A DNA stretch of 64,000 bases from Neocallimastix lanati (nom. inval.). Lineage: Eukaryota > Neocallimastigomycota > Neocallimastigomycetes > Neocallimastigales > Neocallimastigaceae. Both the position numbers and the translations under genes were made by a program. Positions 1 to 55,060 of the stretch are shown piece after piece; the stretch's first letter is position 1; each line of letters starts with the position of its first letter. The stretch is taken from contig JACVTC010000029.1 in assembly GCA_016946835.1 (NCBI GenBank), positions 333,501 through 397,500 of the forward strand, in the 5' to 3' direction. The notes beneath the pieces are model-generated. The model did not search any database and had not been told where the DNA came from. It was given only the letters and a program-made list of their open reading frames with translations.

Positions 1-715
1 ATGATGCAAAAGTATTAAAATAGTATATATAAATTGCATTTTATAATAATTTTATACATTTTTTATTTCAATAACAATAAATACTATTTATTTTTATAAT
101 AATTTTATAAATTTTTTATTAAAATAATAATGCTAATTAATATAATAATAATATATCAATATATCAATTGATAATTAATTTATCTTTATAATTAATATAT
201 TATCAACTAATATGTATAAAATAGGTTTAATTAGATTCTTGGTAAAATTTAACCAAAAAAATCATAATTAAATGAAAAATTAATATATATGAATATATTG
301 TTAATATATAAAAATTAATATATATTAATGCAACATAATACTATTGATTGATTCTTTCAAATTTTTATTTAATAGCATAAAATGATATAAAAGTATAAGA
401 TTTATTATAATCTAAAATATTCTTCTTTTTAAATACAATTTTAAATATTTATTACGTTACAATAAATATAGAATTAGAAAATAGTTATTTTATTTTCTTT
501 TAAAATATAAGTAGAGTAATCTTATATCTTTAAAGCAAAATTTAACTAATATAATTTTAGAATTTCATAAAAAAAAAAAAAAAGAAGGAAGGAAGGAATT
601 GAGTTAAAATAATTGTTTAATTCGAATTAAAAAACACTTATTAAAGTATTAAAAACTTTAACTAAAAATCAAAATTAATATTTATTAGGGTAATTGATTG
701 GAATAAGTTTTAAAA
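1..715. other. A/T-rich intergenic sequence
   Basis: No open frame of note, no RNA gene and no structured repeat were seen on either strand. The segment is plain A/T-rich sequence with a poly-A run near 569-583 followed by a short GGAA-rich patch. It presumably holds the promoter and 5' leader of the TTL-family gene starting at 716, but no specific element can be singled out against this composition. Confidence 0.6.
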
Positions 716-2323
716 ATGTTATTTAAGAATTATTCGAAATTAATTTTATTTAGTTATTATTTCGTGGTAAATTCAAAAGGAAGTAATTTTAATCAAGAGA
801 TTCCAGAATTTCCAAGTGGAATTTCCCAAAATTTTGTTTCAATATCTCCATTGAGTTATTGCAAATTTAATAGAGATAATATCTATTTAGAATATCCACA
901 AAGAATAAATGAAGAAAATGGAAATATTAATGAAATTTCTGGTGTGAATCCAAAGTATGATATTTCTTCTCAAAGTTTATATATGCTAAATCCTTCGAAA
1001 TATTGTAAATGCCATCAGAGGACAGTTTATTTCCAAAGTCCGGATTCAGAAATAAATACTGAAAATGTTAGTAAAATTAATATAGAAAGCGAAGAGTATT
1101 TTGTCAATGCTTATACAAATAAAAGTGGTTTAAGAATACCACGATGTTTAAAGAATTTATTTGTAAATAATGAAATTCAACTTTTTAATTATAAAGATTT
1201 TAATATTACCGATAGTACTTTAGCCTTAAATGTTTATTGGAAGGAATTATCAAATAATTTACATTTAAATAATATTAATAAATATCAGAAATATAATCAT
1301 ATGTTAAAATATAAGCAATTATCTAATAAAAAACACTTTTATGATAATTACAATGTTTTAAAAAAAAAATTCCCAAAAGACTATAATTATATGCCAAACA
1401 CTTATACATCTTTAGAAGAATTTAAAAAGGATTTTAAAGATTATAAAGTTAGTAAGGATAATTTATGGTTAGTTAAACCAAATTTTTCTACCTATGGTAT
1501 TGGAATTCATTTTTTAAAAGATGTTAATAAAGTAAGACGTGGTGATATTGTCACTAAATATGTTTCCAATCCATTATTGATTAATAATAAAAAGTTTGAT
1601 TTTAGAATTTATGTTTTAGTTACTGGACATGATCCTTTAAAAATTTACTTAAATGAACAATGTTTTGCAAGATTAGCCACTGCTGATTATGATATTGACA
1701 TAAATAATTTAGACAATACCTTTAAACATTTAACAAATATTCATGTACAAAGAAAAAATAAAGAGAGTAAGGCAAGTTATGTTATGACTTTAGATGAAGT
1801 AAAAAAGCATATTAAAGAAAACTATAATATTGAATTTTCAGATATATGGAAAGGCGTGAAGGATTTAATAATTAAATCATTTATTGCTGTAAATAGAGTA
1901 GAATTAGAAGCCCAAAAAGAATTTAACTTAGCTTCAAATAGTTTATTCCAATTATTTGGATTAGATGTAATAGTAGATCAAAATGCAAAACCATGGCTTA
2001 TTGAAATTAATGGTCATCCTTCATTAAGTGATAAAGAAACTGCTTCTTTAAATGATCAAAATGTTAAGGATATTTTAAATATTGCAGGATTAGTTCCATT
2101 TTCTCATTTCACTGGTACGGCTATGGAAGGAGAATGTGAATACAAAGATTCAGTAGATGAAGCGGTTCAACAAAGTATATGTGAATTCACAAGACCAACC
2201 GGTAAATTTGAAAGAATTTTCCCAACTAAAGATAACATCGATTATTATAAGCAGTTCTTTGAAGAAGTTACAACAAATAATCAAGCCTTATGGGATGAAA
2301 TTAAAAACAATGATTTTGAATAA
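716..2323 (+). CDS. Tubulin-tyrosine-ligase (TTL/TTLL) family protein
   Basis: Single-exon 535-residue protein. The TTL ATP-grasp core lies at about residues 255-455: WLVKPNFSTYGIGI (ATP-binding Lys and glycine loop), KFDFRIYVLVT, FKHLTN and LDVIVDQ..KPWLIEINGHPSL (metal-binding Asp/Glu/Asn). Enzymes of this family add Tyr, Glu or Gly to tubulin C-terminal tails using ATP; which amino acid this one adds cannot be told. The Arg usual in the glycine loop (RGxGI) is replaced by Tyr. The first 250 residues have no recognised domain. The N-terminus (LILFSYYFVV after two Lys) looks like a weak signal peptide or membrane anchor, odd for a cytosolic tubulin ligase. The start is the first in-frame ATG. 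The 3' end is followed by an imperfect 40-bp-offset duplication (see findings). It may be a divergent, gut-fungus-type member acting on something other than tubulin. Confidence 0.85.
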   Translation: MLFKNYSKLILFSYYFVVNSKGSNFNQEIPEFPSGISQNFVSISPLSYCKFNRDNIYLEYPQRINEENGNINEISGVNPKYDISSQSLYMLNPSKYCKCHQRTVYFQSPDSEINTENVSKINIESEEYFVNAYTNKSGLRIPRCLKNLFVNNEIQLFNYKDFNITDSTLALNVYWKELSNNLHLNNINKYQKYNHMLKYKQLSNKKHFYDNYNVLKKKFPKDYNYMPNTYTSLEEFKKDFKDYKVSKDNLWLVKPNFSTYGIGIHFLKDVNKVRRGDIVTKYVSNPLLINNKKFDFRIYVLVTGHDPLKIYLNEQCFARLATADYDIDINNLDNTFKHLTNIHVQRKNKESKASYVMTLDEVKKHIKENYNIEFSDIWKGVKDLIIKSFIAVNRVELEAQKEFNLASNSLFQLFGLDVIVDQNAKPWLIEINGHPSLSDKETASLNDQNVKDILNIAGLVPFSHFTGTAMEGECEYKDSVDEAVQQSICEFTRPTGKFERIFPTKDNIDYYKQFFEEVTTNNQALWDEIKNNDFE

Positions 2324-15832: not shown

Positions 15833-16327
15833 ATTTTCAAATAATATAAAAGATAAAATTATTATAATTAGTAAATATAGTGAAATATTTAATTAAATAA
15901 TTATAAAAATATAATTATTAAATAGTATTAATTTCTATTTTTTAAATAAAAGTATGAATATGTTCGAGCATTACAAGAAATAAATGATCAATTATTAGGT
16001 GAAATTACAGATAATAATATATCTAAAAAATTACCAATATATATGAGTATGAATGAAGCATTTCATTCTTCATGGAAACTTCAAAATGATGAATTAACTA
16101 ATAATAGAAATGAAGCTATTAAACATAAAAAAAGAATTAAATCAAAAGAATCAAATACTGAAAAAACTATAAGAAATATGTATAAATACAAATATGAGGA
16201 ACAAGTACGAACTTTGGATCGAAGTATACAAGAGACAATAGAAAAAATAATTGGTAATAATAGATAATTAATTAAATAATTAAATAAACTAAACTAAAAT
16301 ATTATAATATATAATATAATATTATAT

Positions 16328-16397
<70 letters not shown>

Positions 16398-17902
16398 GAA
16401 ATGAGAAAATATTCAGTAAAATTGAATAAAGAAGAAAAAGATTTAGATAATCAAATAGCAACAATTAAATCGAAATTAAATCAAAAATTAGATGGAAAAG
16501 TAAAAGAACTTAATGAAACATACGCAACCTTAATTGAACAAAATAAAAATGAGATAAAATATCTTTACGAATCAAATAATAGAAGTGCTGCTGTTTCAAA
16601 ACGATTTGCTGAAGAAAAAATGTGTAATATTGAAGATACCGCAAATATGGTATATTTAAAACAATATTAATTTCAACTTTTAGATAAATAAATATTTTAA
16701 AAAGAATTAATTTGATAATTATATTTAATATTAAAAATTTATATTACATATTACATTTCATATTGATAATAAATAAATAAATAAATAATAAATAAATAAA
16801 TAAATAATAAATAAATAAATAAATATATATATATTTTTAATTTCAGATGCAATTTGAATCATTATCTAATAAAAAGAAAAATATATATTTAAGAAATAAG
16901 TATCTTCATCAACTATACACATCAATTCTAGAAAATATTCAACAATTGCATAATTATAATATCAGATTGGCAAAAGAAAATGAAATCTTAATTAATCATT
17001 GTATTAATATAGATTATAATGGAAAATACTTAAATTATGATGAAAATAAATTAAAAGAAGACATTATGTTATCTTCTAAATCTTTGAATAAAAATAATGA
17101 TGAAATAAAAAAGATTAATTATGAAAAAGTTTCATCAACAATTGAATCTATAATAAATGAAGAATTTAATGAAAATAAATTAAATTCAGAAAATGTTAAA
17201 TCAGGCAATTTTGATGAAAATAAAGAAGAAAATAATATTAATATGGATTTATATGAACGTAGTGAAGAAAAAAATAATAGTACTAATGCTAGTTCACATG
17301 ATAATATAAATTTTAATAACCATATATTAGAAGAAACTGAAATCAAAAGAAATGAAGAGGATGAAGAATTAAAATCACAAGAAGTAATGAAATTAAGTAA
17401 GGAAGAGTTATTAGAACAAAAAAAAGCAATATATGATGATAATGATAATTCGAAATCTTCTTCAACTATTAATTATAATGATATGAGTAATACTGATAAT
17501 AATAAAGGTATTGGAAATACAGATAATTATGATAATAATATTGATATTAGAAATAGTAACTGTAATATAAAAAGTGACATTTCTGATGTTAATTCTGTAA
17601 ATAATTCCAAATTAAATGTGTTACATAATAATCATAATAATGATGATGATAAGGATAGTCAAATTGAATGTATTAGTAATAGCAACTACAACAACAACAA
17701 TAATAATAATACGGATAATAATATTTCAAGTAATATAAATAATAAAGATAATAACGATATTGATAATAATCAGATTGATAATAATCAGATTGATTATAAT
17801 AACAATATAAGTAATGAGAAAGAAAATGTAAATAATGAAGAAGATGATGAATTAATATTTACACTACTAAAAAAAAAAGGTAATGAAAGTTTTTACATTT
17901 AA
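15341..17902 (+). CDS. Lys/Asn-rich coiled-coil protein, possibly flagellum-related
   Basis: Six exons with matching phases: about 15341-15453, 15556-15608, 15739-15797, 15953-16253, 16398-16651 and 16847 to 17878 or 17902. The protein starts MAAKKKNGNKKGNKKS. A helical, heptad-rich middle follows (YEYVRALQEINDQLL, LNKEEKDLDNQIATIKSKL, FAEEKMCNIEDTANM, LHQLYTSILENIQQLHN). The last exon ends in an Asn/Asp-rich low-complexity tail. The basic Lys/Gly start and helix layout vaguely recall BBOF1/DUF4515 basal-body coiled-coil proteins, but this is a weak resemblance. The final exon either stops at 17902 or uses a donor at 17879 (AAAG|GTAATG) to join the segment at 18160 in phase. The intron before exon 5 carries an (AAT)n run. 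Confidence 0.7.
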
Positions 17903-17979
17903 AGATTTTTTTATACTAAATATTAAATTTATATTAATATAATTAAAAAATAAATAAATAAATAAATAAATAAATAAAT

Positions 17980-18134
<155 letters not shown>

Positions 18135-18159
18135 TTACCTAATATTAAAATATATTAGA

Positions 18160-19560
18160 AATGAGGCAAAAAGATTATATAAATGAATCATTATCATATC
18201 CTGAAGACAAGATCGATAATAATATATATTCCAAATATAAATTAAAACGTTTTAAGTTTACTTCACCCAATGATATATATAAAAACTTAAATTTAGATGG
18301 AGACGATAAAAACATGTGTACACGTTTAGTTAAATTAACAAATTTTAAGCTAAATTCTTTAGAACAGTATCAAAAAAAGATGGATAAAATGGATACTTAC
18401 ATGATTGTTAAGAGATATCTTGATATTATGAATAAACAAACTAAAAAAGAAGAAGAATTACAGAATAAAATTAAATGGAAAATCAAAAAACCTGAATACC
18501 CAAAACAATCATTTTTATCAGAAAAAATTGAAATAACTAATGATTCAATCAATGAAAAAAAAACTGATAATTATTATGACTTTATAGATGTTAATGATAT
18601 TACTAAAATCGATGATATTAATCGCTTAACTGAATTGACAATTGCATCAGATGATTATTATAGAAAATTTAATGACATTTACAAGAGAAAAGAAAAATCT
18701 AATTATCGTAATACTCCAAATCTTCGTTTGTATAATAAACATTATGGTCACTTAGTCGATTTTAAAAAAATGGATATTGAAGATCATAATATTAATTCTG
18801 AAAAAGATAAAAATAAGTATGAGAAATAAAAATAAAAAAAATTTTTAATTACTTTATATAAATATTTATTTTATTTTTTTTTTTTTTTAAATATATATAT
18901 ATATATATTAAAATATATTAATTAAATAAAATATATAGAAGTGAATATGTAACAAAGGCTCTTTTGGATGAAAATGAAATTGAGAGATTAGAATTAAAAA
19001 AAAAATTACATAAAGAAAAATTATATAATGATAAATTAATAAGTTATCCTGTGATGTCAATATCTGATAAAGCTATTGTTCAATATAAAAAAAGAAAAGA
19101 ATTTAATGATATTGATATACAAAGGCTTTTAAATTATAAGATTTCAAAGACCAAAAAGTATAAACCAGAAATTCATAGTATTACTCATTATAATAATATA
19201 AATGATATTATAGAGAATAGAGGAAAGAAAGAAGATATTCTCTTAAGTTCATATAGTAATTTAATCAAAGAAAATAATAAGATATTAGATGAAAAAGATA
19301 CAAACCTTTATGATTCAAATGGAAAATATAAAAATATTTTAAATACTATTGATCCATATAAAAAATATTGTAAGTTAGATCCTATAATTGAATTTGAAAT
19401 TAATAAAGCTCTAAAAGATAAAACATTTAAAAATAATGAGTTCTTTTGGTTTAAAAGTGAAAAGAAACCCATAAAAAAAATTGATATTATGAATGATGAA
19501 AAAAGGGAATCATTTGTACCAGAATTAATGAAAAAATCAAAAATTATAAAACCATCATAA
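18160..19560 (+). CDS. Hypothetical charged protein (or 3' exons of the preceding gene)
   Basis: Two coding segments, 18160-18813 and about 18942-19560, joined by an intron with donor AA|GTATGA and acceptor TATAG, in phase (…DKNK / SEYVTKALLDENEIE…). Total is about 420 residues. It begins MRQKDYINESLSYPEDK if translated from its own ATG at 18161. The base just after the upstream acceptor (ATTAG|AA ATG) also fits the phase-1 donor at 17879, so it may be the end of one long protein with the upstream exons. The sequence is rich in Lys, Asp and Ile with helical stretches (TRLVKLTNFKLNSLEQYQ, YKKRKEFNDIDIQRLLNYKI). No domain was recognised and no function is proposed. Confidence 0.7.
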
Positions 19561-20147
19561 TAAAAATTTTTTAATTATACTTTAATTATATAAAGAGACT
19601 ATCATTTGTAAAATATTATATCTTAAAATAATCATAAAATAATTTCAAATCAATTATAAAAAATAATATATTTTTAATTTTTGTTTAAAATTATGTAATT
19701 TTATTGTATTTATAAAAAACATTTTTTTTTATCTAAAAAGTATTTGTATAATTTCAGTTATAAAATAGAGAAAGAAAAAAATAAATACAATTATAATAAA
19801 TTCAAGGAAAACAGTGAAAATAAAATTATAATTTGAAAAAAAAAATGAAAATATATTACATTGTATTAAATAATAAAATAATTAAAATAAAACTCTATAT
19901 ATGTATACGTATATATATAAATATAAATATTTATAAGTTATTAAAATATATTAAATAATTAAAAAAATATTATTTATGTGATTAATAAAAAATATAAAAA
20001 TATAAATAAAAATAATAATAGTTTTAAAATTGAATTTTATTTTTTTATTTTTTTATTTTTTATTTTTTTTTTTTATAAAAAAAAAAAAAAATAATTGAAA
20101 ATATTTATTTCTAATGTAAAATTAAGAATAAGGAATTAAAACTATAA
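19561..20147. other. A/T-rich gap between convergent genes
   Basis: Separates two convergent genes. It contains only A/T-rich sequence with T- and A-homopolymers near 20040-20095. Terminator or poly-A signals cannot be singled out at this composition. Confidence 0.5.
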
Positions 20148-23100
20148 TTAATAGTTTCTGTAATTAGGTTGTTGGTTGGAATTATAATGAGTATTAAATC
20201 CTCCATTATCCTCCATCATATTCATATTTTTAGTAGAAACTGGATACATTTGTTCTTGACTACTCATTTGATAGAAATTGTTATTATTTAGTGATTGATA
20301 TGAATGTGATAACTGTGTTTGCATATTATTGGTTGGTTGATGAATGGTATTAAATTGATTAATATTTAAATTATTATTAAATTGTGATGAATTGAGACTT
20401 CCCATACTATTTCTATTATTTAATTGATTAATTGGTTGTGAATTATTAATTAAGACATTTCTATTGTATTCTTGTTGCGTCATATTATTATTTAAAGTAT
20501 GATTATATTGAGATGAGTCCATTACACTATTATTTATTGAATTATTATTTGAACTATTATTTTTATTAATGAATTCTTCATTTATCGATAGATTTGAATT
20601 ATATTGCTGTGATATATTAGAATTACTACTTCTCTGACTGAATTGCTGTGGTTGATTCATATTCATATAAGAATTACTATTTCTATTACTGTCACTTAAT
20701 TGATATTGATCTATATTTATATTATTATTACCATTTCTGTAACTTAATTGCGGTGGTTGATTCATGTTCATATTAGAATTACTATTTCTGTTACTGTTGC
20801 TTATTTGTGGTTGACTCATATTTATATTAGAGTTACTACTTCTGTTACTATATTGTTGTGGTTGACCCATATTTATATTGGAGTTACTACTTCTGTTACT
20901 ATATTGTTGTGGTTGATTCATATTTATATTGGAGTTACTACTTCTGTTACTATATTGTTGTGGTTGATTCATATTTATATTGGAGTTACTACTTCTGTTA
21001 CTATATTGTTGTGGTTGACCCATATTTATATTGGAATTACTACTTCTATTACTATATTGTTGTGGTTGGCCCATATTCATATTAGAGTTAATATTTCTAT
21101 TACTATTACTTATTTGTTGCTGACTCATATTAATATTATTAAAGCTATTACTTATATTCCTATTTAATTGTTGATTGCTACTTAGGCTATTATTACTTGA
21201 TTGCATTTGTCCTATATTCATATTTGAATTATTACCTCCATTTCTATATTGTTGTTGTTGGTTCATACTGGAGTTACTACTTCTATTACTATATTGCCTT
21301 TGTTGATTCATATTTGAATTGCTATTACTATTTGAATGTGCTAATCTACTAAATGAATTATTTATGTTATTATAAGATGAATGAACTGATTGATTGTAAT
21401 TTTGATTACTATTGTTATTACTATTATTAGAATATGAATTTTGTTGTTGTTCATTGTAATTTATATTATTGAAAGAGGAATGATTGCTATTACTATTTGA
21501 AATACTATTACTACGACTATTTTGTTGCATTGGATTATTATTTATATTCATATTATTCATTTGATATGAAAGATCATTTTCAGAATTATCTATACTACCA
21601 GGACGATCAATATTATTAATTGAGTTACTATTAATTTGTTGACTATTAATACCATTATTAGATGAATAAATTCCATTATTTATATTATTAATTGAACCAG
21701 AATTTCCACGAGAATGTTGCTGTAAGTTATTATTACTATTTGATACACTATTACTACTATGAATACTTTGGTTACTTCTTCTAAATTGTGGTGGTACATT
21801 TCTATAATTATTATTAATTGAACTATTCGAATTACTTGAATATCTATTTTGCCCTGTGAATGAATTATTAGACTGGTCATAAGTATTTAGATCATCATTA
21901 GTGAAATTATTCATTGGTTGATTATTATAATTATTATTATTCATATTATTAGAATAATTATTTTGATCATTATAAGTAAAGTTTTGATCATAGTTTTGAT
22001 TATCATAATTATTATTACCGACATAATTATTTTGCATTACATTTTGATTTGATCTTGAATTATATAATGGAGGTAAATTATTGTTATTATTAATATTATT
22101 GTTACTACTATTCATTCTATTTTCTGGATAAGTTGATACCTTTTTGGCTTTTAATGATAAATTACTGTTTGAGGTTGAATTTTGTGAACCCTCATAGTAT
22201 TCAGATCTACCATTTGAAGAATTTATTGTATTATTAATTTCATTAATATTAGGTTGTTGTTGTGGTGTTATACCATTATACATTTCATTCATAGAATTTC
22301 TTATGCTATTGTTATTACTACCTTTTTCAATTGAAGATATACTATTAATAATATTTTGATTTTGAATTGGTTCATTTTCATTATTCATGAGACTTGACAT
22401 ACTATTTGATTGAGATTTTCTAGTAGGAGAATACATTGCTTTTTGTTCTCCATTATTATCATTATCATTACCTTCATTAACATTTTGATATATTGAATAT
22501 TGTTGTCCATTACCTCCATTTCTAAATACTGTTTGACTTCCGCCGACTTGATATCCAGTATGATTAATGCTATTATTACTTCCCATATTATTATTACTTC
22601 CCATATTATTATTACTTCCAATACTATTATTACTTCTCATGTTATAGTTACTTCCCATACTATTGTTACTTCTCATGTTATAGTTACTTCCCATACTATT
22701 ATTACTTCCCATGTTATTATTATTTCTCATATTATTGTTACTTCCTATATTATTGTTACTTCCCATATTATTGTTACTTCCCATATTATTGTTACTTCCC
22801 ATATTATTGTTACTTCCCATATTATTGTTACTTCCCATATTATTGTTACTTTGCATGTTATAGTTATTTCCCATATTATTGTTACTTCCCATATTATTGT
22901 TACTTTGCATGTTATAGTTATTTCCCATATTATTGTTACTTCCTATATTATTATTACTTCCTATGCTATTGTTACTTCCCATATTATTGTTACTTCCCAT
23001 ATTATAATTAATTCCAACATAATTATTACTTCCTATGTTATAACTTCCCATATTGTTGTTATTTAAATTATTAAAGCTATTATTAATACTTCCGTTTCCA

Positions 23101-24499
23101 CTGTTATTTCCACTATTATTATTAAAAGATCTTTTTCCTATTCCTGAATATGTTGCTAGAGGAACTCTAGGTGGTAATCCAGAGTTTAGCTCATTATTAC
23201 TACCATCTTCAAAAGTATTTTGAGTGTTTGATTGATATAGATGTTCATTACAACTAATAGATACTCTTTTTGGACCACTATAATAATCAGTAGGAATATA
23301 ATTATTAGAACTTTTAAGAATAGAGGCTCTTCTTTGAGAATTAATATTTCTATTATAGGATGGACGAGCTATATCTTGACTTCCATAACTAGTACCTCTA
23401 TTCAATTGGGTCAAAGAATTATTTCCACTACTACATACTGTACTTAATTTTCTTCCATAGACATGCTCGTCATATTCACTTAGTTCTTCTGCATCAAATA
23501 ATTCATGGGCTTCTTGGAAATCAAATTCAATTGGAATATCTTGATATTGTTGATATTCATTAATTAAATCAGTAACGTTGTTATGGGCTTCTGTAAATTC
23601 CATTTCATCTAAACCTTCACCAGTGTACCAATGTAAGAAAGCCTTTTTACGAATCATTGCACAGAACTGTTCTTCAATTCTTTTAAATGGCTCCTGTATA
23701 GCTGTTGTATTTCCAATAAACGTACTTGAAAGTCTATATGATTTAGCTGGAATATCACATACACTAATTTTTATATTATTTGGGATCCATTCTACAAAAT
23801 ATGGACTATTCTTTTCTTGTGTTTCCTTAATATGTTGCTCAATTTCTTGGGTTGATAATTCTTTTCCTCTAAACATACAAGCAGATGTCATATAACGACC
23901 ATGTAATGGATTATATGCAGTCATTAAATTTTTAACATCAAACATTTGATTTGTTAATTCTTGTATGCTTAATTTGGTATAATCTACTGAATCTTCTGGA
24001 CATAGTGGAGCTTGTCCGAGAGTAAAGAAATGTAATCTTGGAAATGGAACCATATTAACAGCTAATTTTCTTAGATCAGAATTTAACTGACCTGGGTATC
24101 TTAATGAAGTGGTAATTCCAGACATAACAACAGAAATTAAATAATTAAGATGCTGATATGATGGATTTTTAAATTGCAAAGTTCTTAAACATATATCATA
24201 AAGAGCTTCATTATCAATACAAAATGTTTCATCAGAAAACTCTGTTAATTGTTGAGTACTTAATATAGCATTGTATGGTTCTACAACTGTATCACTAACT
24301 TTTGGTGATGGAATAATACTAAAGGTACATATCATTCTATCTGGAAATTCTTCTCTAATTTTTGATAGTAATAATGTTCCAAGACCTGAACCAGTACCAC
24401 CACCTTTTTTTTATTTTTATTTTTTTTTATATGTTATATTTATAATTAATTATTAATATTGATTTATTTAAAAGATTTTGTATTATTAAAATAAATGTC

Positions 24500-24532
<33 letters not shown>

Positions 24533-25126
24533 TATTAATTTTTTAAATATTAATTTACCTAGAGAATGGGTTAATTGAAAACCTTGCATGCATTCACAAT
24601 TTTCTGCTTCTTTTCTTATAGCATCCATTATTTGATCAATTAATTCAGCACCTTCTGAATAATAACCTTTAGCCCAGTTGTTTCCAGCACCGGTACTTCC
24701 TAATAGAATTTTATATAAAATTTGATATTTTATATATTTTTATATATTTTTATATATTTATATTTTTTTTATTTAAAATTCAATAAAATTGTTAAATAGA
24801 TTATTACCGTTAATAAAGTTTCCTGGATGGAATAGTTTTCCTATAGGACCACTTTTTATTGAATCAAGAGCCCCTATATTTAATATAATATTTATTAATA
24901 TTTATTTAATAATTAATCATTTTATCTCAATATTTACTAACCTGGTTCAAGATCTATCATAATTGATCTATATATAAATTATATTTTTTTAATATAAAAC
25001 AAAACTTTAATTAATGATTCAATTATTAATACATTTATTAAATAATAAAATATATATTATATTATTATTAATATTATTATTATTATTATTCTTTTTTTTT
25101 TTTTTATTATTTATTTTTATTATTTA

Positions 25127-25175
<49 letters not shown>

Positions 25176-25412
25176 TTTTTTTTTTTTTTGATATAACTAT
25201 AACTAATTTAAAATATAATTAAAATACCTTGGTACATATCTACTTTGCTGTGATTCATTATAATATACGTTAATTCTTTCTTTTTGATAAGAATTATTAC
25301 CAATATATCTACCAAGTTCATCTATTCCATGTTCTTCATTAATTGTTTCCCAAAATCTTGTACCAATTTGATTACCACATTGCCCAGCTTGAATTGAAAC
25401 AATTTCTCTCAT
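20148..25412 (-). CDS. Divergent beta-tubulin with giant Asn-rich C-terminal extension
   Basis: Five exons: 25412-25228, 24967-24942, 24873-24808, 24699-24559, 24403-20148, all GT-AG and in phase; 1,557 residues against about 445 for normal beta-tubulin. Core hallmarks: MREI start (the tubulin autoregulation motif), [36 protein letters not shown] at 140-146, [30 protein letters not shown] (fungal benzimidazole-type Glu198/Phe200), [13 protein letters not shown] (Lys254, so beta type), [19 protein letters not shown] and EYQQYQD. The M-loop is unusual ([14 protein letters not shown]). An acidic tail ([21 protein letters not shown]) is retained and then runs in the same frame into about 1,100 residues rich in Asn, Ser, Gly, Gln and Met, built partly from 6- and 17-residue tandem repeats. 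The linker has RRAS and KRVS motifs. This is probably a specialised paralogue; a conventional beta-tubulin gene should exist elsewhere. Confidence 0.93.
20745..21130 (-). repeat. 51-bp coding minisatellite in the tubulin extension
   Basis: Tandem 51-bp units, about six to seven copies, encode the 17-residue repeat [17 protein letters not shown] with changes such as G/N/S after NM. The edge copies are more diverged. The reading frame is preserved throughout because the unit is a multiple of three. Confidence 0.9.
22565..23050 (-). repeat. 18-bp coding minisatellite in the tubulin extension
   Basis: About 25 tandem 18-bp units encode the hexapeptide GSNNNM, with M/I/S variants and some GN/QS/RN substitutions. 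Groups of units are themselves duplicated (the motif containing [10 protein letters not shown] appears twice), which indicates recent slippage or unequal exchange. Confidence 0.9.
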
Positions 25413-26380
25413 ATTTTATATATTATAAGAAATATATAAAAAAAAATTTTTTTTTTAATCTTTACTTATTTTTAGAAATAGTGTAATATACAGATCAAAC
25501 TTTATATTGTTAAAATATTTATAAAATATGTATATTCTTAAAGAATTCAAATATATGCTTTATTTTAAATTTTGATCGAATAATTTATATATTTATTTCT
25601 CTTTGTTAAAAATAAAAGATTAAACAATAACTGACTAAATAAATAATATGAATTAAAAATGCTTATATTAGTTCTAAAGCATTTATTATAATGATTATAG
25701 TAATGATAAAAAGAAGAAAATGTTTTTTTGTATTTTGAAAAAAAAAATTTTTTTTTATATATAGTATTCAAAGTTATTTAAAATGAAATCTATTCAATAT
25801 ATATATTATAATATATTAATTCATTGAAAAATATATATAATATTCTCTGTAAAAAGTCCTCGGAAAATTTGGATTTCAAACAAAATGTTTTGCAAAAAAA
25901 TAGTTTAATAGTAGCGTAAAAGTTTATTTAATATAAAGTTATAACAATCGTGTACAAATAAACTTTAAAATAATTTTTCATCTTTAACTTATAAAATTTT
26001 AAATATATTAATTAAAAAATACATATTAAAATCATTATGTTAATATTGGTTAATTATTAAATATTGAAAAGAAAACAAAAAATAAATAATACATTTAATA
26101 TTAATCAATATTTAAATATAATGATATATAAAAGAAAAAAAAAAATTTAATTTCATATTTTTAAAATTTTGATTTTATTTATTAAATAAATATATAAGTT
26201 TACCATACATTATGTGTATATATGTGAAAATATAATTATTATATCTTTATTTTAATAAAAAGAAAAATATAAAGTAATAATTTTATTTAAATAATTAAAA
26301 ACATATTTTATTCGATTAGTATTTTAAATGTGTAATAATAACAAAAAAACATATACAAAATTTTGTTTTAATAAATTTAA
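25413..26380. other. A/T-rich intergenic sequence, probable tubulin promoter side
   Basis: Lies upstream of the beta-tubulin-like start and downstream of the kinesin relic. No gene, RNA or ordered repeat was recognised. A poly-T stretch sits about 30 bases before the tubulin ATG on its strand. Confidence 0.45.
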
Positions 26381-26384
26381 TTCA

Positions 26385-28800
26385 TGATTTTCTTTTGTAG
26401 ATCATTTTTTGTTTTCAAATAAGTATCAATATCATTTTTTATTTTATTAGTAACATTAAAATATTAATGAAAAATTATGTTGTTATTTATCATAGGAGAA
26501 GATAATAACTTATCATATTTCATTAAATTTAAATTATACTGAATAATAGTAGGATCAATTTTATTTACAAGAGGATTAGATTTTAATTTCTGACTACTAT
26601 TTATTGTCTTAGATATTATTTCACTCGTAATTCTTGAATTTGAGTATGATATAGATAGATGACTCAATATTGTGATAAATATTTATTGTCATCATATTCA
26701 TTATTACTACTTTTTTAATGATAGTTTGAAGCTGATGATTACACTTTATGATTATCATTGTCATTGATGATATTTTTTGCTTAATAATTTTCGACTCTTA
26801 TCAAACAGAATAGATTCTGAACTAGAATTATAAAGTATAGATTCATTTACTAATTTCTCAAAGAGAGTTTTATTAGATCCTATTGAATATTTATTTGAAA
26901 TTTCTCTAGATCTTATTTTGCTATTACAATCGTTATTAATAATTTTAAATGAATTCATTTCTTCTTTATTAGTTTTTGAAATTTTATCAATACTATTTTG
27001 TTAATGTAATATATAGATTATAATAAAGAATTATATTATTAACAATTATTTATATTAATATAAATATATATATATATATGCACCTTTCTTTATAATTAAT
27101 TAATAAATATTAAATAGAGAATAAATACTTTTAAATGATGTTTGATGTCTTAAATATATTACTATTAGTGCTATAAGTATTTACAATTTAATAGCCATAA
27201 TCTTTTTTTAACCTATATCTTGCTTTCTTAAGTAAAGTTGTATATGATTTATTTTTATCTTCATTTCCTTTTTGTATTTATATAATTTTTGATACGGATA
27301 ATTGATTTGATTAAAATATTATAAGTTAAAATAAACATTCTGAATTTAATTATATATATTAATATACTTTGATGCAAATTCTGAAGCATCATCTTTATTT
27401 TTCATTTTTTTTCCTCTGATATTAAGGTATCAACACGATTTATAAACTTTGCATTCAAAAATTCTAGTATTTTCATAATTGTAAAAATAAGTTAATTAAA
27501 TGAATATGTAATAATACATATTAAATTTATTCTTTAAGATATAAATATATATTACTTAATATAATTCTATAACTTTTCGTTGTTTCTCTTAATTGTTTAG
27601 CTTCACTAACTTTCATATTAAAAAAGCATATCTTATTTTTCAGTAACCTTTATAAATCAATTTATTTTCAGAAAAATTATTTAAATAAGTATGCACATCT
27701 TGTTTTATTTATTACTATAATATATATGTATATTTGTAAATTTAATATTTAAATATAAATAAAAATTTATTAAATTAAAATCAATTTTCAAAATATTTAT
27801 AGGATTACTTTTTTTTTTTATAATCTGAAAATTTTTCACTTGAATCTTCTCTTTCACTTCTTGCTATAGATAATTCTATTTTAAATCGAACAATTTCATA
27901 TTAATACTTTCAATAACTAATTATGGATCAATATTTCAAAAAAATACTTTTATTAGAAGTAAGAGAAACTCGTCTTGCAAATCAACATATTGATATTGAT
28001 TCCTAATTATTATTAATAATTAATAATTATTTATATTTAAAATATATACTTTTATATAATAATAAATATTTTTATAATGTATAATTTTAATTATATCTAT
28101 TATTTACTTCAATTAATTCAGGTTCTTCTACAATAATAGCAATTATCACAGTTTTACAATTACTATCAAGAAAATTCCTAAAAATATTTGTCATTATTAT
28201 ACATCTATATGTGGGATATGTTGTCTTTTTCCTAAAGCTTTTTTATATAATGTAATAATTACTTATTCTAAAGTAATGAAGTGATAAATTAATAATTTTT
28301 GCTTCTTTTAACAAAACTCCTCTAATTTGAATTGTTGCTATTTTCTCGGAACTTTTTTATATATACAAATAGCTATATTTCAGTATAAAAAAAGAAAAGC
28401 TAAATATATAATTAGTATTACATATTAATAAAACATATATTTATTAGAAATCAAAATGTCTTTTATCTATAAAAATATGAATATTTTTTTATAGTTTATC
28501 ATATTTACCCAACTAAATCTATTAAATGTAGTTTTACTTTTTCTTATAGAGTCATGTTATGGTCTTTTGCAATAGCAATTATAATAAAATGCAGAGACTA
28601 CCGGATGATTTCGGGATTAGATGGGGCTTCTGAATAATTCTATTAGTATCACCTCGAGTTTCATTATGTAGAATTCAAAATTCTATTTTTGGTAAATGTT
28701 TATCATTTAGTAACTTTATTTTTAGACGTCCTTATTCTGGAATAAGTTTAATTGTTGAAACAATCTCTTATGTGATTATCATTAATGTCATATTCGCCAT
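26385..28800 (-). pseudogene. Kinesin-9 (KIF6/KIF9-like) pseudogene, 5' truncated
   Basis: Reading the minus strand downward, pieces of a kinesin motor appear in the correct order: ETRGDTNRIIQKP (about 28660-28615; compare the GDTNR motif of KIF6), VKLHLIDLVG (about 28535-28508), SEKIATIQIRGVLLKEAK then IINLSLHYF (about 28356-28272), GKRQHIPHIDV (about 28240-28203), NCKTVIIAIIVEEPELIE (about 28170-28112), SISIC/FARRVSLTSN (about 28003-27955) and LVIESINMKLFDLK. C-terminal traces follow, SEAKQLRETTKSYRI and LLKKARYRLKKDYGY, matching the conserved KIF6/9 tail. Stops sit at conserved Arg positions (SIC*FARR and DP*LVIE) and before VKLHL. A frame change interrupts the IINLSLHYF/GKRQH junction. 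The ATP-binding half of the motor (GQTGxGKT) is absent. Kinesin-9s work in the flagellar axoneme. Confidence 0.82.
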
Positions 28801-29891
28801 TTTTAATTTCGTTTTTTTTTTTTTTTATTATAATCTATAAAATCGTTTACAATTATCATTATCTATCATTATCATCATTTTTTTTTGAATTTTAAGGAAT
28901 TAACATCATTTAAATATATCATTACTTTTTTTTTTTTTTTTTTTTTTTTTGATATATCTGTCTGAGAGATACAATTTTTCAGTATATATATCTTATTTAT
29001 AATTGTATTATATATAAATATTTTTTCTTATAATAATATAAAACAAATTTCTATTATGCAGAGATGAATTTTTAAAATTAATATTCTATGTAGATTATAG
29101 AGATTATTGAGTATATTACAGCAAAAAGACTATTGAATATTGAATATTTATTATATTTTATTTTAATTTATTATATTATTTATTATTATTATGTATATAT
29201 ATCTCCATTGTTAATTTTAATTATGATAAAAACCTTATGAATTTAATAATCAATATTAATTTAAAAAAAAAATTTTGAATTTTATTATAATAAAAATTCT
29301 TTTTTTAAAAAAAAAAAATTCTAAATTTTTAATAAAAACGTGTAATATTGTGTATTTGTATATAATTAATATAATTATAAAGTATTATAAAAATTTTCAT
29401 TATAGTTTTTATTTTTTTTTTTTTTTTTTTTTTTTTATTTTAAATTATTAAAGTTTTATTGACAGTAAAAATGTTTAAAATAATATACATAACCAATTAA
29501 AATCAAATAAAAAAATCAAACTTTAATAATAATAATAATGATAAAAATCAAACTTTAAAATTAAAAAGTTATAATTTACTAATGAATGATACAAAAAAAA
29601 AAAAAACTAAATAAAAAAAAAAACAAAATATACAATAAACAATTTAACTATCAAAATTTTATATTTTCAAAGATTTTATAATAAGCTTAATTATAATATA
29701 AAAATAAACAATTTTGGTTTATTAATTTTAAAAAATTATAATTTTATTTCTATTAGAAAATAACATATATATTGAATTATATAACAATAATTAATAATTT
29801 AATTTATTTTAATTAAATTCAAATATCATATTTCATATTGTTAATAATTAACATTTTTTGTAAATCATAATAATTTTTTTTAATCAAAACA

Positions 29892-29931
<40 letters not shown>

Positions 29932-30237
29932 ATTATTTATTATTAGAAATTCAATTTTAATTGTAATTTCTTTATTTTTAATCGTTTAATATTTTCTTAT
30001 TTTTATTTCTACATTTTATAATTTTTTAAAATATACCTATTACTACTTTTTATTTCTACTTTTTATTTTTTTTTAAAATATACCTATTTACATTTAGATT
30101 TATATTTAATTACTTCTACTACCAAAATAAAATAATAATAAATATTATATTTAAATTATAATTTTTAGAAAAACAATAAATTTAAAGTGATTAAATATAA
30201 CGATTATATAAAAATATAATAATTTGATTAAATTATA
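28801..30237. other. A/T-rich intergenic sequence
   Basis: Several long T runs (28927-28950, 29408-29436, 29892-29927) and otherwise featureless A/T sequence. The missing 5' half of the kinesin relic was looked for here on the minus strand and not found. Confidence 0.5.
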
Positions 30238-31737
30238 ATGTTAAAATTTGGATTTGGGTTGGGAAAGAAAAATGCCAAAAAAGATGAATCTACTATGAAA
30301 AAAAATGAAGTAATATATATATATATATAAAACTAATACTAAAAAATAATTGTATAATAATAGTAAAAAATATTTAGGTATTTAATAAAAATATTAATAT
30401 ATATATTATATTCCATAATATTTAAATTATAGAAAAAAAATACACATTTAAAGTATTTCGATCAATTAACTGTCAGTGATATACATATATTTAATTTGAA
30501 TGATTTAATATTTGAAAATGCATTACACATAGCTATTCTTAATGATAATAGAGAAAAAATTGATACACTCCTTCAATCAAGAAAAAATAATATAAATAAA
30601 AAAGATTCTATAAAACAGTATACACCATTACATTTAGCTGTTTATTTAAATGATATTGACTTAACTAATCAAATTTTAACAATAAAAAATTTAAATATAG
30701 ATGAAAAGGATGCAGATAATAAAACAGCATTGATTATTGTATGCAAAAAGAACAAATAATTATATGAAATAATATGATTTTTTAGTTTCAAATATCATTG
30801 TGCTTAATTAATATTCTTTTATTTTAATTATTACTTTAATCTTTAAATATAAAAATTTATCTAAAAAATTTTTTATAGGCTTCCATGATGGGTAATAGTC
30901 AAATTGTTCAGACGTTGTTAAATCATAAATCTTCTATAAATTGTACAGACAATATTGGATGTACTGCACTACATTATACTATATTAAATAATGATAGAAA
31001 ATCTTTTAATTTAATACTTGAGAGAAAACCAAATTTGAATTTTATTGATAAAGTATTATATATATATTCAATTTATGAATAAGAATATAAATAAAATGCT
31101 AAAACGTTTAATTTATTAATCAAAAATTTATTTAAAATAATATTCATTGTAGTCTGGGTATTCATATTTACATCATGCTATTCTTCTTAAAAGATATGAA
31201 ATGTCAAAAGAATTAATAGAAGCGAAAATTAATGTTAATATAGTGGATAAAAATGATCAGTTAATATCAATATTATTAAATCATTTATAATATAAATCAT
31301 ATTATAATTGTATATATCAAAATTTTATTATTAATATAATTTATCTATAAATATAAATATAAATATAAATATAAATATAAATATATTTAAGGATTCCATT
31401 GCATCATGCATATATTCAAAATCAAAATACAATAGTTAATTTATTATTAGAAAATGGAAGTTATACAAGAAAAACTGATTTATTTGGTAAAATTCCATCA
31501 GATTATAAAAATTTAAATGGAAATATAAAACAAGAGTCAAATTCTTTTGAATCATCAAATGTAAATACACAAATAAATGAAATAAAATTATTATTATGTT
31601 ATCTCTATTATATTTTCATAATTATATAAATAAGTATTTAATTTTAAAATATTTTTTTTTATTATTTATTATATATTTTTATTATATTTTTATTATATTT
31701 TTATTTATTTTTATTTTATTTTTATTTGTTTAATATA

Positions 31738-31816
<79 letters not shown>

Positions 31817-31894
31817 TTATTTGCATTTTATTTTTAAAATATATTATTTATTTATATATTTATTTTTATTATGAAAATTTAATTAAAATTAATT

Positions 31895-31931
<37 letters not shown>

Positions 31932-34900
31932 GAATCAGAACAATATCAATTAGAAAACACTGATGAAGAATATAATGAAAGTAATTATGATGATTCAAGT
32001 ATAATTTCTTTTGAGAGTTCTCAATTAACTCCAAAAATTACTGATAATAAACAAAATAGTAAAAGAAAGATAAAAGAAAATAATAATGAAAATAAAAAAA
32101 ATAAAAATAGTAGCAATAATAATAAAGATAGAAAAAATTCGAATAAAAGAAATAATATAACTGATGATAATTATTTAACTACAAATTACAAGGTTAGTTA
32201 ATAATATTAAATGAATAAAGTCTTAAATACAATATATCATTAATAATTATTATTAATAATAACATTATTTTTTTTATATATAGGATAATAATATCATAGA
32301 TAAACTTAATCAACCAATTATTAAAATTATTTCACATAAAAAAAAGAATAATCTTGTAGTTCCTGTGGATCATAATGTATTAATTTTTATATATAACAAA
32401 ATTTCATTAAGATAAATTATATTTAAATAAAAAAAATATATATTTATTAATATCTATAATTTATAATAAAAAAATATATATTTATTAATATCTATAATTT
32501 ATAATAAAAAAATATATATTTATTAATATCTATAATTTATAATAAAAAAATATATATTTATTAATATCTATAATTTATAATAAAAAAATATATATTTATT
32601 AATATCTATAATTTATAATAAAAAAATATATATTTATTAATATCTATAATTTATAATAAAAAAATATATATTTATTAATATCTATAATTTATAATAAAAA
32701 AATATATATTTATTAATATCTATAATTTATAATAAAAAAATATATATTTATTAATATCTATAATTTATAATAAAAAAATATATATTTATTAATATCTATA
32801 ATTTATAATAAAAAAATATATATTTATTAATATCTATAATTTATAATAAAAAAATATATATTTATTAATATCTATAATTTATAATAAAAAAATATATATT
32901 TATTAATATCTATAATTTATAATAAATTAAAATATAAAATATTTTTCATTGTTAAAGACCCATGATAATGATAATTTAACAAGTGATCTTTCAATTAGTA
33001 CCTTTTCATATTCTACTAATATATTAAACGAGGATGATGACGATATTGATAAGGATACAAGTTATTCCTCAGAATTATGGAATGAATTTAGTGTTTTAAA
33101 TAAAGATAAAAGAATATTGTCAAATGGTAATACTCTGGAAGAAAGTAAAATGAGCGTTACTGCTGAAATTAAACATGTCTTAAATGATGAATATGAAGAA
33201 TCTTATAACGATGTATGATATATAAATTTTTATATTATATTTATTAGTTTTATTACATATATAATTAATATTTAAAAATATATATTTTATTTTTAGCTAT
33301 CTCTAATGGATGAAGATAAACAAATACCTGAAATATTAAATGTACCACAAAATGTAATGGATTCTATTGATTATTTACATGAAAAAAATAGCAAAAATAT
33401 ATCAGCAAAATTAAAAGCAAAGAATGAAAATAGTAAAAAGGACCCTTATATAGCAAAGAATAAAATGAAAAATATAAATAATAAATATAAAAATTCTAAA
33501 TCAGATGATGAAGATATATCTGATAATTCTATTTTAGAAATAACAGACGATGATTCATTTAATATAAAAAAAAATGAAAAAAATAAAAATAATAAAAATA
33601 AATTATCTAAAACAAGTAATATTAAAATTTTTATTAATAATATATTTTAATAATTGATAATCAATTAAAAAATTAATCATAAAAATAAAATAAAATAAAA
33701 TAAAATAAAAATAAAAGTAAAAAAAAATTAATAAATAATAATATTATTACATATTATAATATTTTTTTTTTAAAAAATATTTAATGGTTTAATAGGCGAT
33801 GAAATTAGTCTTTCGGAATCCTCAAGTTTATCAATTGATGATGAAGAAGAAAATACAGAAAGAAATTATAAAAATAAAAAAGATAGAGATAATAGAAAAA
33901 ATAAAAGGAAAGAGGAAGAGAAAATAAATAATATTCAAATTCATGAAGTACATCTCTCTGAAGATAATAATGAAAATGATGATAGTAGTATTGATTTTTC
34001 AAGTGAAATTATTATGCCAGATAATAGCAATATGAATAATAAGGATATACACATTGAAAAAAATAAGTCAAATAGATCTAGTAAAAAACAAAGCAATAAT
34101 AATAGAAATTATTTGAAAGACAATTCTGAAAAGTACAGTACAATTAAGAAAAATCCAATATCGAAAATTCTTTTCAATGATGATTTAGGAATGGATATGA
34201 AAAATAAAAAAACAATAAATCATAAAGAAATAAGTTATCATAAAGTAATTAATAGAGATGTTAATGATAACAATAAATATATAGGTGAAACTAATTATAA
34301 TGAAATTGATGATAATTTATCTATTCCAGACGACGATAGTTTTTCTATCTCTGATGGTAATGAATATCCTAATAAAATTCATAATAAAAAAAAATACAAT
34401 ATAAATACTAATAATAAAGATGATATATCATTATCAGAAGAAATAATAAGTAATAATGATCAAGAGCTTAATAGTAATGATTCAAATAGTTTAATTAAAA
34501 GTAAACTTGAATATGAAGAATTAAAAAGGAAAGGCTTGCTGTTACAAAATGAAATACATAAAGAAGAAGAATTATTAAAGAATTCAAAGAAAGATGAAGA
34601 AAATCTAAAAAATATTCTTATTGGAAGATTTATGAATAAGAATTCTACTAATTTAAATGATGAAGTTTCTAAACAAAGCCCTAATATGAATGCTAATATG
34701 AAAAACGAAATATCTAGTAATTTTGACGAAACTGAACCTCTTTCAACTGAAATAAATGATTCCAAAATCACAGAGTCTGTTTATATACAGAAAAATGAAG
34801 TTGATAATACTTATTCAGGAAATAATGAAAATTCTGAACTAAATAAAAGTAAAATTATTGATTCTATTGGTGATATAGATATTACTGATCATTTTGAAAA

Positions 34901-45561: not shown

Positions 45562-45852
45562 TTTTTCTAAAATATAATTATATGAAGAATATCAATATTT
45601 AAGAAATCCTAATTTATATATTTCAATATAAATATGAATTATTATCATTTTTTTTATAAGAAAAAAAATATTAATAAACATACTTATAACTAATAAACAC
45701 ACTTATAACTCTTTTGTTTTTCTTGAACAGAAATTAATTAAATTATTATTTAATAATTAATATTTTTATTTTAAAATCTAAAATTAATAAAGTTATTCAT
45801 AACATAATAACGCAATTAGAATTATTTGTAATTAAAAAAAAAAAAAAGGACA
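42236..45852. other. Long A/T-rich intergenic region with satellites
   Basis: About 3.6 kb with no gene. It contains TTATTATTTATT-type satellite at about 42790-43075, a GC-richer hairpin island at 43491-43553 listed separately, an (AAAT)n run at about 44328-44410 and several long T runs (44935-44950, 45294-45336, 45544-45566). The final kilobase is the likely promoter side of the YTH gene. No RNA gene was recognised. Confidence 0.5.
43491..43553. repeat. Short hairpin element with CACGTG ends
   Basis: The ten bases ATCACGTGAA at 43491-43500 are the exact reverse complement of TTCACGTGAT at 43544-43553. The interior carries TTGGCGTTATGCAACCTCCC, which resembles the TTGGGGAAATGCAACTCTCC word of the 5.4-5.96 kb foldback array. 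It is much GC-richer than its surroundings. Confidence 0.6.

Positions 45853-55060
<9,208 letters not shown>

What the first reader, a model, noticed from the sequence alone, without database searches (positions are those of the whole stretch)
20148..25412. Beta-tubulin carrying an Asn/Ser/Gly/Gln-rich extension of more than 1,100 residues
Seen: a complete beta-tubulin core ([18 protein letters not shown]) continues in a single open exon through an acidic tail into a prion-like, repeat-built domain, giving 1,557 residues. Known: beta-tubulin tails are normally about 20 acidic residues on the microtubule surface. Inference: the extension would project from the lattice as a long bristle that could space, bundle or phase-separate microtubules, perhaps in a zoospore or rhizoid-specific structure.
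Basis: partly seen in the sequence, partly recalled or inferred. Interest (0 to 1): 0.88.

Follow-up and report, generated by a model that had tools for sequence, protein, structure and literature searches.

The report
Beta-tubulin with giant disordered tail
An anaerobic gut fungus carries an unusual form of the microtubule protein beta-tubulin whose tail is roughly fifty times longer than normal, and two gene copies have kept this tail under selection, which suggests that it does something, although what it does is untested.

Summary
On the minus strand, 25412-20148, five GT-AG exons encode 1,557 residues: a full beta-tubulin core (about 430), an acidic stretch, then about 1,100 residues rich in Asn, Ser and Gln. 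The core is split over five exons; its later part and the whole extension share the last. It is not a misjoin: the same genome holds a second copy on another contig, in a collinear duplicated block, with the same exon layout and the same extension (1,632 aa). Between the copies omega is 0.08 in the core and 0.39 (0.32-0.48) in the extension, like four neighbouring ORFs (0.19-0.51). Conserved islands, some with basophilic-kinase-type motifs, alternate with fast-changing Asn-rich arrays. An Anaeromyces robustus relative, deposited at 473 aa, ends in what looks like an out-of-frame reading of the first island. No other public protein with this extension was found. The core is a divergent beta class (about 66% identical to the genome's ordinary beta-tubulins), GTP signature intact, M-loop altered, no EGEF axoneme motif. 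Best reading: a specialised, probably non-axonemal beta-tubulin isotype whose tail is a phosphorylatable disordered brush, a built-in MAP. Gene and tail: strong evidence. Function: inferred. Asn-rich sequence as such is ordinary in this genome.

The parts
25228..25412 (-). Exon 1 (185 nt): [17 protein letters not shown]..., residues 1-61 and two bases of codon 62
   Evidence: same length in the C190 copy
24942..24967 (-). Exon 2 (26 nt): SIMIDLEP
   Evidence: same length in the C190 copy
24808..24873 (-). Exon 3 (66 nt)
24559..24699 (-). Exon 4 (141 nt): GAGNNWAKG region
20148..24403 (-). Exon 5 (4,256 nt): rest of the tubulin core, acidic stretch and complete extension, stop TAA at 20150-20148
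   Evidence: Pfam PF00091 and PF03953 in the core; no Pfam family at E <= 0.1 in 968 residues of the extension (window 20148-23054)
23454..23531 (-). Acidic stretch, residues 431-456 ([26 protein letters not shown]): 10 acidic and no basic residues; no EGEF motif
23067..23453 (-). Island region 1, residues 457-585: [46 protein letters not shown]; omega 0.38 over residues 431-585
   Evidence: a query from this region matches only the window and the C190 copy in the genome
22571..23061 (-). Tandem array of about 27 units of 18 bp (M-G-S-N-N-N)
   Evidence: in the C190 copy about 63 units of 18 bp, better described as about 32 units of 36 bp
22032..22562 (-). Island region 2, residues 754-930: [49 protein letters not shown]; omega 0.48
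20613..21138 (-). Tandem array of about 10 units of 51 bp (around [18 protein letters not shown]); not detected as an array in the C190 copy
20151..20624 (-). C-terminal region, residues 1400-1557: [28 protein letters not shown]; omega 0.65 (0.39-1.09), the least constrained of the three non-repeat parts tested

Best explanation
A divergent beta-tubulin isotype of anaerobic fungi, a third beta class beside two ordinary ones found in this genome. Shown by sequence: a complete tubulin core with intact nucleotide signature; an acidic stretch; a roughly 1,100-residue low-complexity extension made of short conserved islands (some with [RK][RK]xS-type sites) separated by quickly changing Asn-rich spacer arrays; maintenance of all this in two duplicated gene copies, and signs of at least its first island in Anaeromyces. 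Inferred: the protein pairs with alpha-tubulin and co-assembles into a particular, probably non-axonemal microtubule array. The extension hangs off the outer lattice surface as a disordered brush. The islands just after the acidic tail, with clustered basic residues and serines, contact neighbouring lattice surfaces or partner proteins and are switched by a PKA-like kinase. The N-rich arrays act as spacers whose exact length matters little. In effect the subunit carries its own MAP projection domain. The cellular structure (for example the microtubules around the clustered flagellar bases of the multiflagellate zoospore) is a guess.
For: Gene structure and frame. Second copy in a collinear block with the same five-exon layout and islands. 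Purifying selection: omega 0.082 (0.050-0.123) core, 0.392 (0.317-0.478) extension, 0 of 1000 bootstraps at or above 1 in either; four neighbouring ORF pairs (of ten that match) give 0.19-0.51. [RK][RK]x[ST] sites: 4 observed against 0.48 expected in the window copy and 5 against 0.35 in the C190 copy, 0 of 1000 composition shuffles reaching either; six [RK]xx[ST] starts aligned in both copies. The first 110 residues after the acidic stretch have net charge +7 in both copies. Array lengths differ (27 against 63 units) while islands stay. Divergent class: window gene, C190 copy and A. robustus P0137 form a 100/100 clade on a stem of 1.23; 237 of 292 columns invariant in 15 canonical beta-tubulins are kept, and 44 of the 55 changes are the same residue in all three members. 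The two ordinary beta classes have ordinary acidic tails, one with EGEF. Precedents for divergent beta isotypes with separate arrays: Tetrahymena BLT1 and BLT4 (65% and 56% identical to canonical beta, substituted M-loops, no EGEF, not in cilia; PMC3382179, passages).
Against: No transcript, protein or localisation data were available. No other public protein with the extension was found: none of 1,030 candidates scored E <= 10 against residues 432-605, although Neocallimastix californiae proteins are in that database (P0215). The 473-aa A. robustus model ends before the extension, so a short isoform may exist there. A donor-like GTATGT lies at the start of the extension in both copies (about 23438). 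Asn-rich stretches are common in this genome and may be tolerated rather than used. The narrower motif R[RK]xS is enriched clearly only in the C190 copy (4 against 0.17, 0 of 1000), less so in the window copy (2 against 0.31, 33 of 1000), and broad [RK]xx[ST] is not clearly enriched in the window copy (16 against 10.9, 64 of 1000). Basic clustering alone could give such motifs. Charge after the acidic stretch is only +17 and +8 over 1,101 and 1,176 residues, so a strongly cationic tail is not supported. M-loop changes could impair assembly.
Confidence: 0.55

Rival explanations
1. The tubulin is real and the extension is translated, but it is a tolerated low-complexity accretion typical of an A+T-rich genome, with little function beyond a few residues next to the core.
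For: Four other stop-to-stop ORFs of the window (16841-17899, 45832-47568, 49318-51906, 54176-55057) have 24-39% Asn; the arrays change length freely; the far C-terminus has omega 0.65 with an interval reaching 1.09; no relative of the extension was found in public proteins.
Against: The extension as a whole is under purifying selection comparable with four neighbouring ORFs. Islands far from the core (residues 754-930, omega 0.48, 0.31-0.72) are conserved, and [RK][RK]x[ST] sites exceed composition shuffles. Both duplicates kept the tail.
Confidence: 0.25
2. The main product is a short isoform: splicing from the start of the extension removes or frame-shifts the tail, giving an ordinary-length divergent beta-tubulin, with the long form rare.
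For: The deposited A. robustus protein P0137 stops at 473 aa; its last 20 residues can be read as the +2 frame of the [12 protein letters not shown] island, 15 of 19 positions against a maximum of 13 in 200 shuffles. A donor-like GTATGT is present in both copies here.
Against: The putative intron sequence is protein-like: omega 0.38 over residues 431-585, and the extension DNA is 75% A+T against 91-96% in the four predicted introns. A constantly removed tail would not keep a 1,100-codon frame in two copies. By eye no AG sits at the place corresponding to the inferred A. robustus acceptor in either copy. A wrongly predicted intron has been reported in a divergent beta-tubulin model before (Tetrahymena BLT4; PMC3382179, passage).
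Confidence: 0.12
3. The protein no longer builds microtubules; the tubulin core serves as a GTP-dependent scaffold or tubulin-dimer binder that brings the low-complexity tail to microtubule ends.
For: Long stem branch (1.23); 55 of 292 canonical invariants changed, including position 72; altered M-loop sequence.
Against: Core omega of 0.08, intact GTP signature and LRKLAVN, and overall identity similar to Tetrahymena BLT1, which does enter microtubules.
Confidence: 0.06
4. Assembly or gene-joining artefact.
For: None found.
Against: Same structure on a second contig in a collinear block, with neighbours of similar divergence.
Confidence: 0.02

Closest known systems
Canonical beta-tubulin (best-scoring solved chain 12rt_B, tubulin beta-3)
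   Same: Whole core aligns, residues 1-434 with chain residues 1-433; MREI start, [14 protein letters not shown]; Pfam PF00091 and PF03953 above cut-off.
   Different: 65.5-66.9% identical, over the pieces aligned, to this genome's own beta-tubulins L001, L002, L005 and L006; one-residue insertion after FRG; M-loop region (name recalled) TSRGSQQY of L005 is CPEDSVDY here; about 1,100 residues follow the acidic stretch instead of an end after about 20.
Divergent ciliate beta-tubulins BLT1/BLT4 of Tetrahymena (PMC3382179, passages)
   Same: A divergent beta isotype beside canonical ones, similar identity (65%, 56%), altered M-loop, no EGEF axoneme motif; position 72 substituted in both; BLT1 also has a one-residue insertion (at another place).
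   Different: BLT1 has 471 and BLT4 458 residues, so no long extension; common descent was not tested.
Naegleria mitotic beta-tubulins (PMC9081340, passages)
   Same: Divergent beta-tubulins, 62-66% identical to the flagellar beta-tubulins of the same organism.
   Different: The passages seen do not mention a long extension; not compared by sequence here.
Anaeromyces robustus 'class V beta tubulin' (P0137)
   Same: Same clade, 94% identical over 445 positions, same acidic stretch up to EELSEYDAH.
   Different: Deposited at 473 aa; its last 20 residues look like an out-of-frame reading of the first island.
Projection-domain MAPs (tau, MAP2; seen only in a search listing)
   Same: Working analogy only: a disordered polymer on the microtubule surface with phosphosites.
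   Different: No sequence relation claimed; here the polymer would be part of the tubulin subunit, and it is not strongly cationic.

Membership tests
Beta-tubulin | Tubulin GTPase and C-terminal domains | tested here: met
   PF00091 224 bits (cut-off 33), PF03953 105 bits (cut-off 26.6)
Beta-tubulin | MREI start, GGGTGSG signature and lysine in LRKLAVN (T7 loop; beta type, recalled) | tested here: met
Beta-tubulin | Closer to beta than to alpha tubulins | tested here: met
   65.5-66.9% identity to beta loci L001, L002, L005 and L006, about 38% to alpha loci L003 and L004
Beta-tubulin | Short acidic C-terminal tail ending the protein | tested here: not met
   An acidic stretch is present (residues 431-456) but 1,101 residues follow; this is the variation reported, the domains and signatures of the family being met
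Beta-tubulin | Assembles with alpha-tubulin into microtubules | not testable with these tools
   Inferred from the intact GTP signature and core omega 0.08
Axonemal beta-tubulin | EGEF motif in the tail | tested here: not met
   Absent from the window protein, the C190 copy and P0137; present as EGEFDEEE in the tails of L005 and L006
Prion-like domain protein | Asn/Gln-rich, low-charge composition | tested here: inconclusive
   Asn 29.8%, Ser 17.6%, Gln 8.9% over residues 431-1557, but Asn-rich ORFs are common in the window; no prion predictor was run
Prion-like domain protein | Forms condensates or self-propagating assemblies | not testable with these tools
   Needs experiment

The most novel reading that the evidence does not exclude
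Anaerobic fungi have evolved a tubulin that carries its own MAP: a lineage-specific beta-tubulin whose 1,100-residue, phospho-regulated disordered tail coats a dedicated microtubule array and sets its spacing or partner recruitment from within the lattice, with tail density set by the ratio of this isotype to ordinary beta-tubulin.
Probability: 0.35. Interest if true: 0.87.

Novelty: new variant of a known kind. Interest (0 to 1): 0.68.

Why it matters
Tubulin tails carry the 'tubulin code', yet they are normally only about 20 residues long. A natural beta-tubulin with about 1,100 further residues, kept in duplicate, suggests that evolution can graft a MAP-sized polymer directly onto the lattice. 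It would be a natural tool for asking how much mass and disorder a microtubule can carry, and how isotypes sort to separate arrays. It may also mark a structure particular to the multiflagellate zoospores of these fungi, and it shows that deposited gene models can hide such tails, as the Anaeromyces model seems to.

Tried and rejected
Orthologue searches. By residues 432-605 (query cut to 972 aa): none of 1,030 candidates at E <= 10. By residues 1-480 (query cut to 654 aa): 7,785 hits among the 7,972 scored, 120 listed, which gave P0137. Of the 221 proteins held, 15 have 100 or more residues after the end of the tubulin alignment; in none is Asn among the four commonest residues of that part. 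The 15 were not checked one by one.

Scans of viral contigs and genome contigs (the latter bacterial and archaeal, so a fungal hit was not expected) gave no relatives: 15 and 19 pattern hits, none confirmed. Rfam found nothing in the window at gathering thresholds. The structure model of an exon 5 fragment was poor (mean pLDDT 36.6) and is not used for anything.

Considered and rejected: chance open frame, assembly join, and the C190 copy as a mere allele: core dS 0.52 and neighbour dS 0.37-0.63, extensions of 1,127 and 1,202 aa counted from residue 431. The alpha and ordinary beta tubulins that I compared also come in pairs (dS about 0.2); whether those are duplicates or haplotypes was not resolved. 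Other tubulin-like hits (C246, C445, C53:314168) were not classified.

Papers: nine searches. I saw titles and the starts of abstracts of 15 of 31, 15 of 15, 1 of 1, 12 of 23, 8 of 8, 4 of 4, 4 of 4, 10 of 15 and 0 of 0 papers; none of those seen announces a tubulin with such a tail or a study of Neocallimastix beta-tubulin isotypes. This is a limited open-licence library. In PMC13358043 (12 of 28 places shown) canonical tubulins of the fungal flagellum are named and this isotype is not mentioned in the places shown. PMC9081340, PMC8480134 and PMC3382179 were seen as passages only.
Full report
What is there. The gene lies on the minus strand, 25412-20148. Five exons (25412-25228, 24967-24942, 24873-24808, 24699-24559, 24403-20148) join with GT...AG introns of 68-260 nt and 91-96% A+T, and give 1,557 residues. 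Residues 1-430 are a complete beta-tubulin core (Pfam PF00091 and PF03953; best solved chain tubulin beta-3). An acidic stretch follows to residue 456 (10 acidic, no basic residues), then 1,101 residues. From residue 431 on the protein has 30% Asn, 18% Ser and 9% Gln. An open frame of that length is not chance (about 5e-61 with independent bases at the exon's composition).

Which organism. The genome held has 199 Mb in 762 contigs. One ordinary beta-tubulin in it (L001) is identical over 450 of 450 residues to the Neocallimastix californiae protein P0215, and 150 of 150 scored CBM_10 (fungal dockerin) candidates pass the cut-off, out of 1,440 found in the first look. It is therefore a Neocallimastix or a very near relative. 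Zoospores of Neocallimastix bear more than 16 flagella (PMC8480134, passages).

It is not a join of two loci. Contig C190 carries a second copy with the same layout (exons of 185, 26, 66, 141 and 4,481 nt) and 1,632 residues. Ten window ORFs around the gene (15950 to 33215) match C190 in the same order, so a whole block was duplicated. Core dS is 0.52 and the dS of four of these neighbouring ORF pairs is 0.37-0.63, that is, a similar age. Two stretches of the extension used as queries find these two loci in the genome and nothing else of note (one search also lists a chance-level match at E = 0.69).

The extension is selected as protein. Omega between the copies is 0.082 (0.050-0.123) in the core, 0.392 (0.317-0.478) over the 915 aligned codons from residue 431 on, and 0.497 (0.370-0.658) over its non-repeat parts; the four neighbouring ORFs give 0.36, 0.51, 0.19 and 0.47. 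The last 158 residues are weakest: 0.65, interval to 1.09, with 5.8% of bootstraps at or above 1. These are Nei-Gojobori estimates from one pair of sequences; alignment within the repeats is uncertain. What persists is a string of short islands, such as [95 protein letters not shown] and QMYPVSTK, identical or nearly so in the two copies. Between them are arrays that change quickly: an 18-bp unit occurs about 27 times here and about 63 times in the other copy, and a 51-bp array of the window copy is not detected in the other.

Motifs. [RK][RK]x[ST] occurs 4 times against 0.48 expected, and 5 times against 0.35 in the C190 copy, with 0 of 1000 composition shuffles reaching the count in either. 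The narrower R[RK]xS is enriched clearly only in the C190 copy (4 against 0.17, 0 of 1000; window copy 2 against 0.31, 33 of 1000). The broader [RK]xx[ST] is enriched in the C190 copy (18 against 7.7, 0 of 1000) and not clearly in the window copy (16 against 10.9, 64 of 1000). That such motifs are sites of PKA-like kinases is recalled, not tested, and clustering of basic residues could produce them.

A third member. The best relative in the protein database is a 473-residue 'class V beta tubulin' of Anaeromyces robustus, P0137, whose core is 94% identical to the window gene and 91% to the C190 copy over 445 positions. It follows our proteins through EELSEYDAH and then ends with 20 unrelated-looking residues. 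Asking whether these could be another reading frame of an extension-like sequence: the +2 frame can match [19 protein letters not shown] of the C190 copy at 15 of 19 positions, and the window copy at 14 of 19 at the corresponding place, the best places over the whole extensions; 200 shuffles of the peptide, tested on the first 180 extension residues, reach at most 13 and 12. The simplest reading is that the first island exists in A. robustus and that the gene model, or a real splice form, leaves the frame. The DNA itself was not available to me, and no statement can be made on the rest of the tail there. No other public protein with the extension was found, although N. californiae proteins are in the database; whether its gene models omit this tail I could not check.

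What kind of tubulin. The core is 65.5-66.9% identical, over the pieces aligned, to the ordinary beta-tubulins of the same genome (L001, L002, L005, L006). Window gene, C190 copy and P0137 form a 100/100 clade on a stem of 1.23 changes per site; its place among beta-tubulins is unresolved and the alpha outgroup is very long (22 rows). Of 292 columns invariant in 15 canonical beta-tubulins, 237 are kept; of the 55 changed, 44 are changed to one and the same residue in all three members. The GTP signature and LRKLAVN are intact; position 72 (T to A), position 223 (G to Q) and the M-loop region are changed. L005 and L006 have the EGEF axoneme motif in the tail; the long ones do not. This pattern resembles the divergent Tetrahymena isotypes BLT1 and BLT4, which have 65% and 56% identity, changed M-loops and no EGEF, and which were not detected in cilia (PMC3382179, passages), and in degree of divergence the mitotic beta-tubulins of Naegleria (PMC9081340, passages). 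That is a likeness of kind, not shown descent.

How it may work. Shown: gene, frame, conservation, [RK][RK]x[ST] enrichment. Inferred: co-assembly with alpha-tubulin, outward-facing tail, phospho-switching. The place of the beta tail on the outside of the lattice is established knowledge. After the acidic stretch the tail is only weakly cationic (+17 over 1,101 and +8 over 1,176 residues), with +7 in the first 110 residues of both copies, so I do not claim a strongly basic, tau-like tail; partner recruitment by the islands is at least as likely as lattice bridging. The main rival is that the tail is a tolerated accretion of an A+T-rich genome: other ORFs in the window with 24-39% Asn show that such sequence is common here. 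Conservation of distant islands at a level comparable with neighbouring genes speaks against pure tolerance.

Verdict. A real and unusual gene: a new variant of beta-tubulin, with strong evidence for the long tail as coding sequence and no direct evidence on expression or function.

Noticed in passing
window 707-2320 (+): A tubulin-tyrosine-ligase family ORF (PF03133, 188 bits) lies about 18 kb from the tubulin gene; probably coincidence, but TTL-like enzymes modify tubulin tails.
   Followed up: no
window 60719-63271 (+): ORF with Stealth_CR1, CR2 and CR3 domains.
   Followed up: no
window 49318-51906, 54176-55057, 45832-47568 (+): Other Asn-rich open frames (32%, 39% and 24% Asn) without Pfam matches.
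   Followed up: partly
L001/L002, L003/L004, L005/L006: Ordinary beta and alpha tubulins also come in pairs with dS about 0.2, lower than the 0.52 of the long pair; the genome may hold duplicated or uncollapsed segments.
   Followed up: partly
window 15950-33215 against C190 (L012, L009, L013): Collinear duplicated block: ten flanking ORFs in the same order on both contigs.
   Followed up: yes
P0137 C-terminus: The deposited Anaeromyces robustus beta-tubulin model appears to end in an out-of-frame reading of extension DNA; a candidate for re-annotation.
   Followed up: partly
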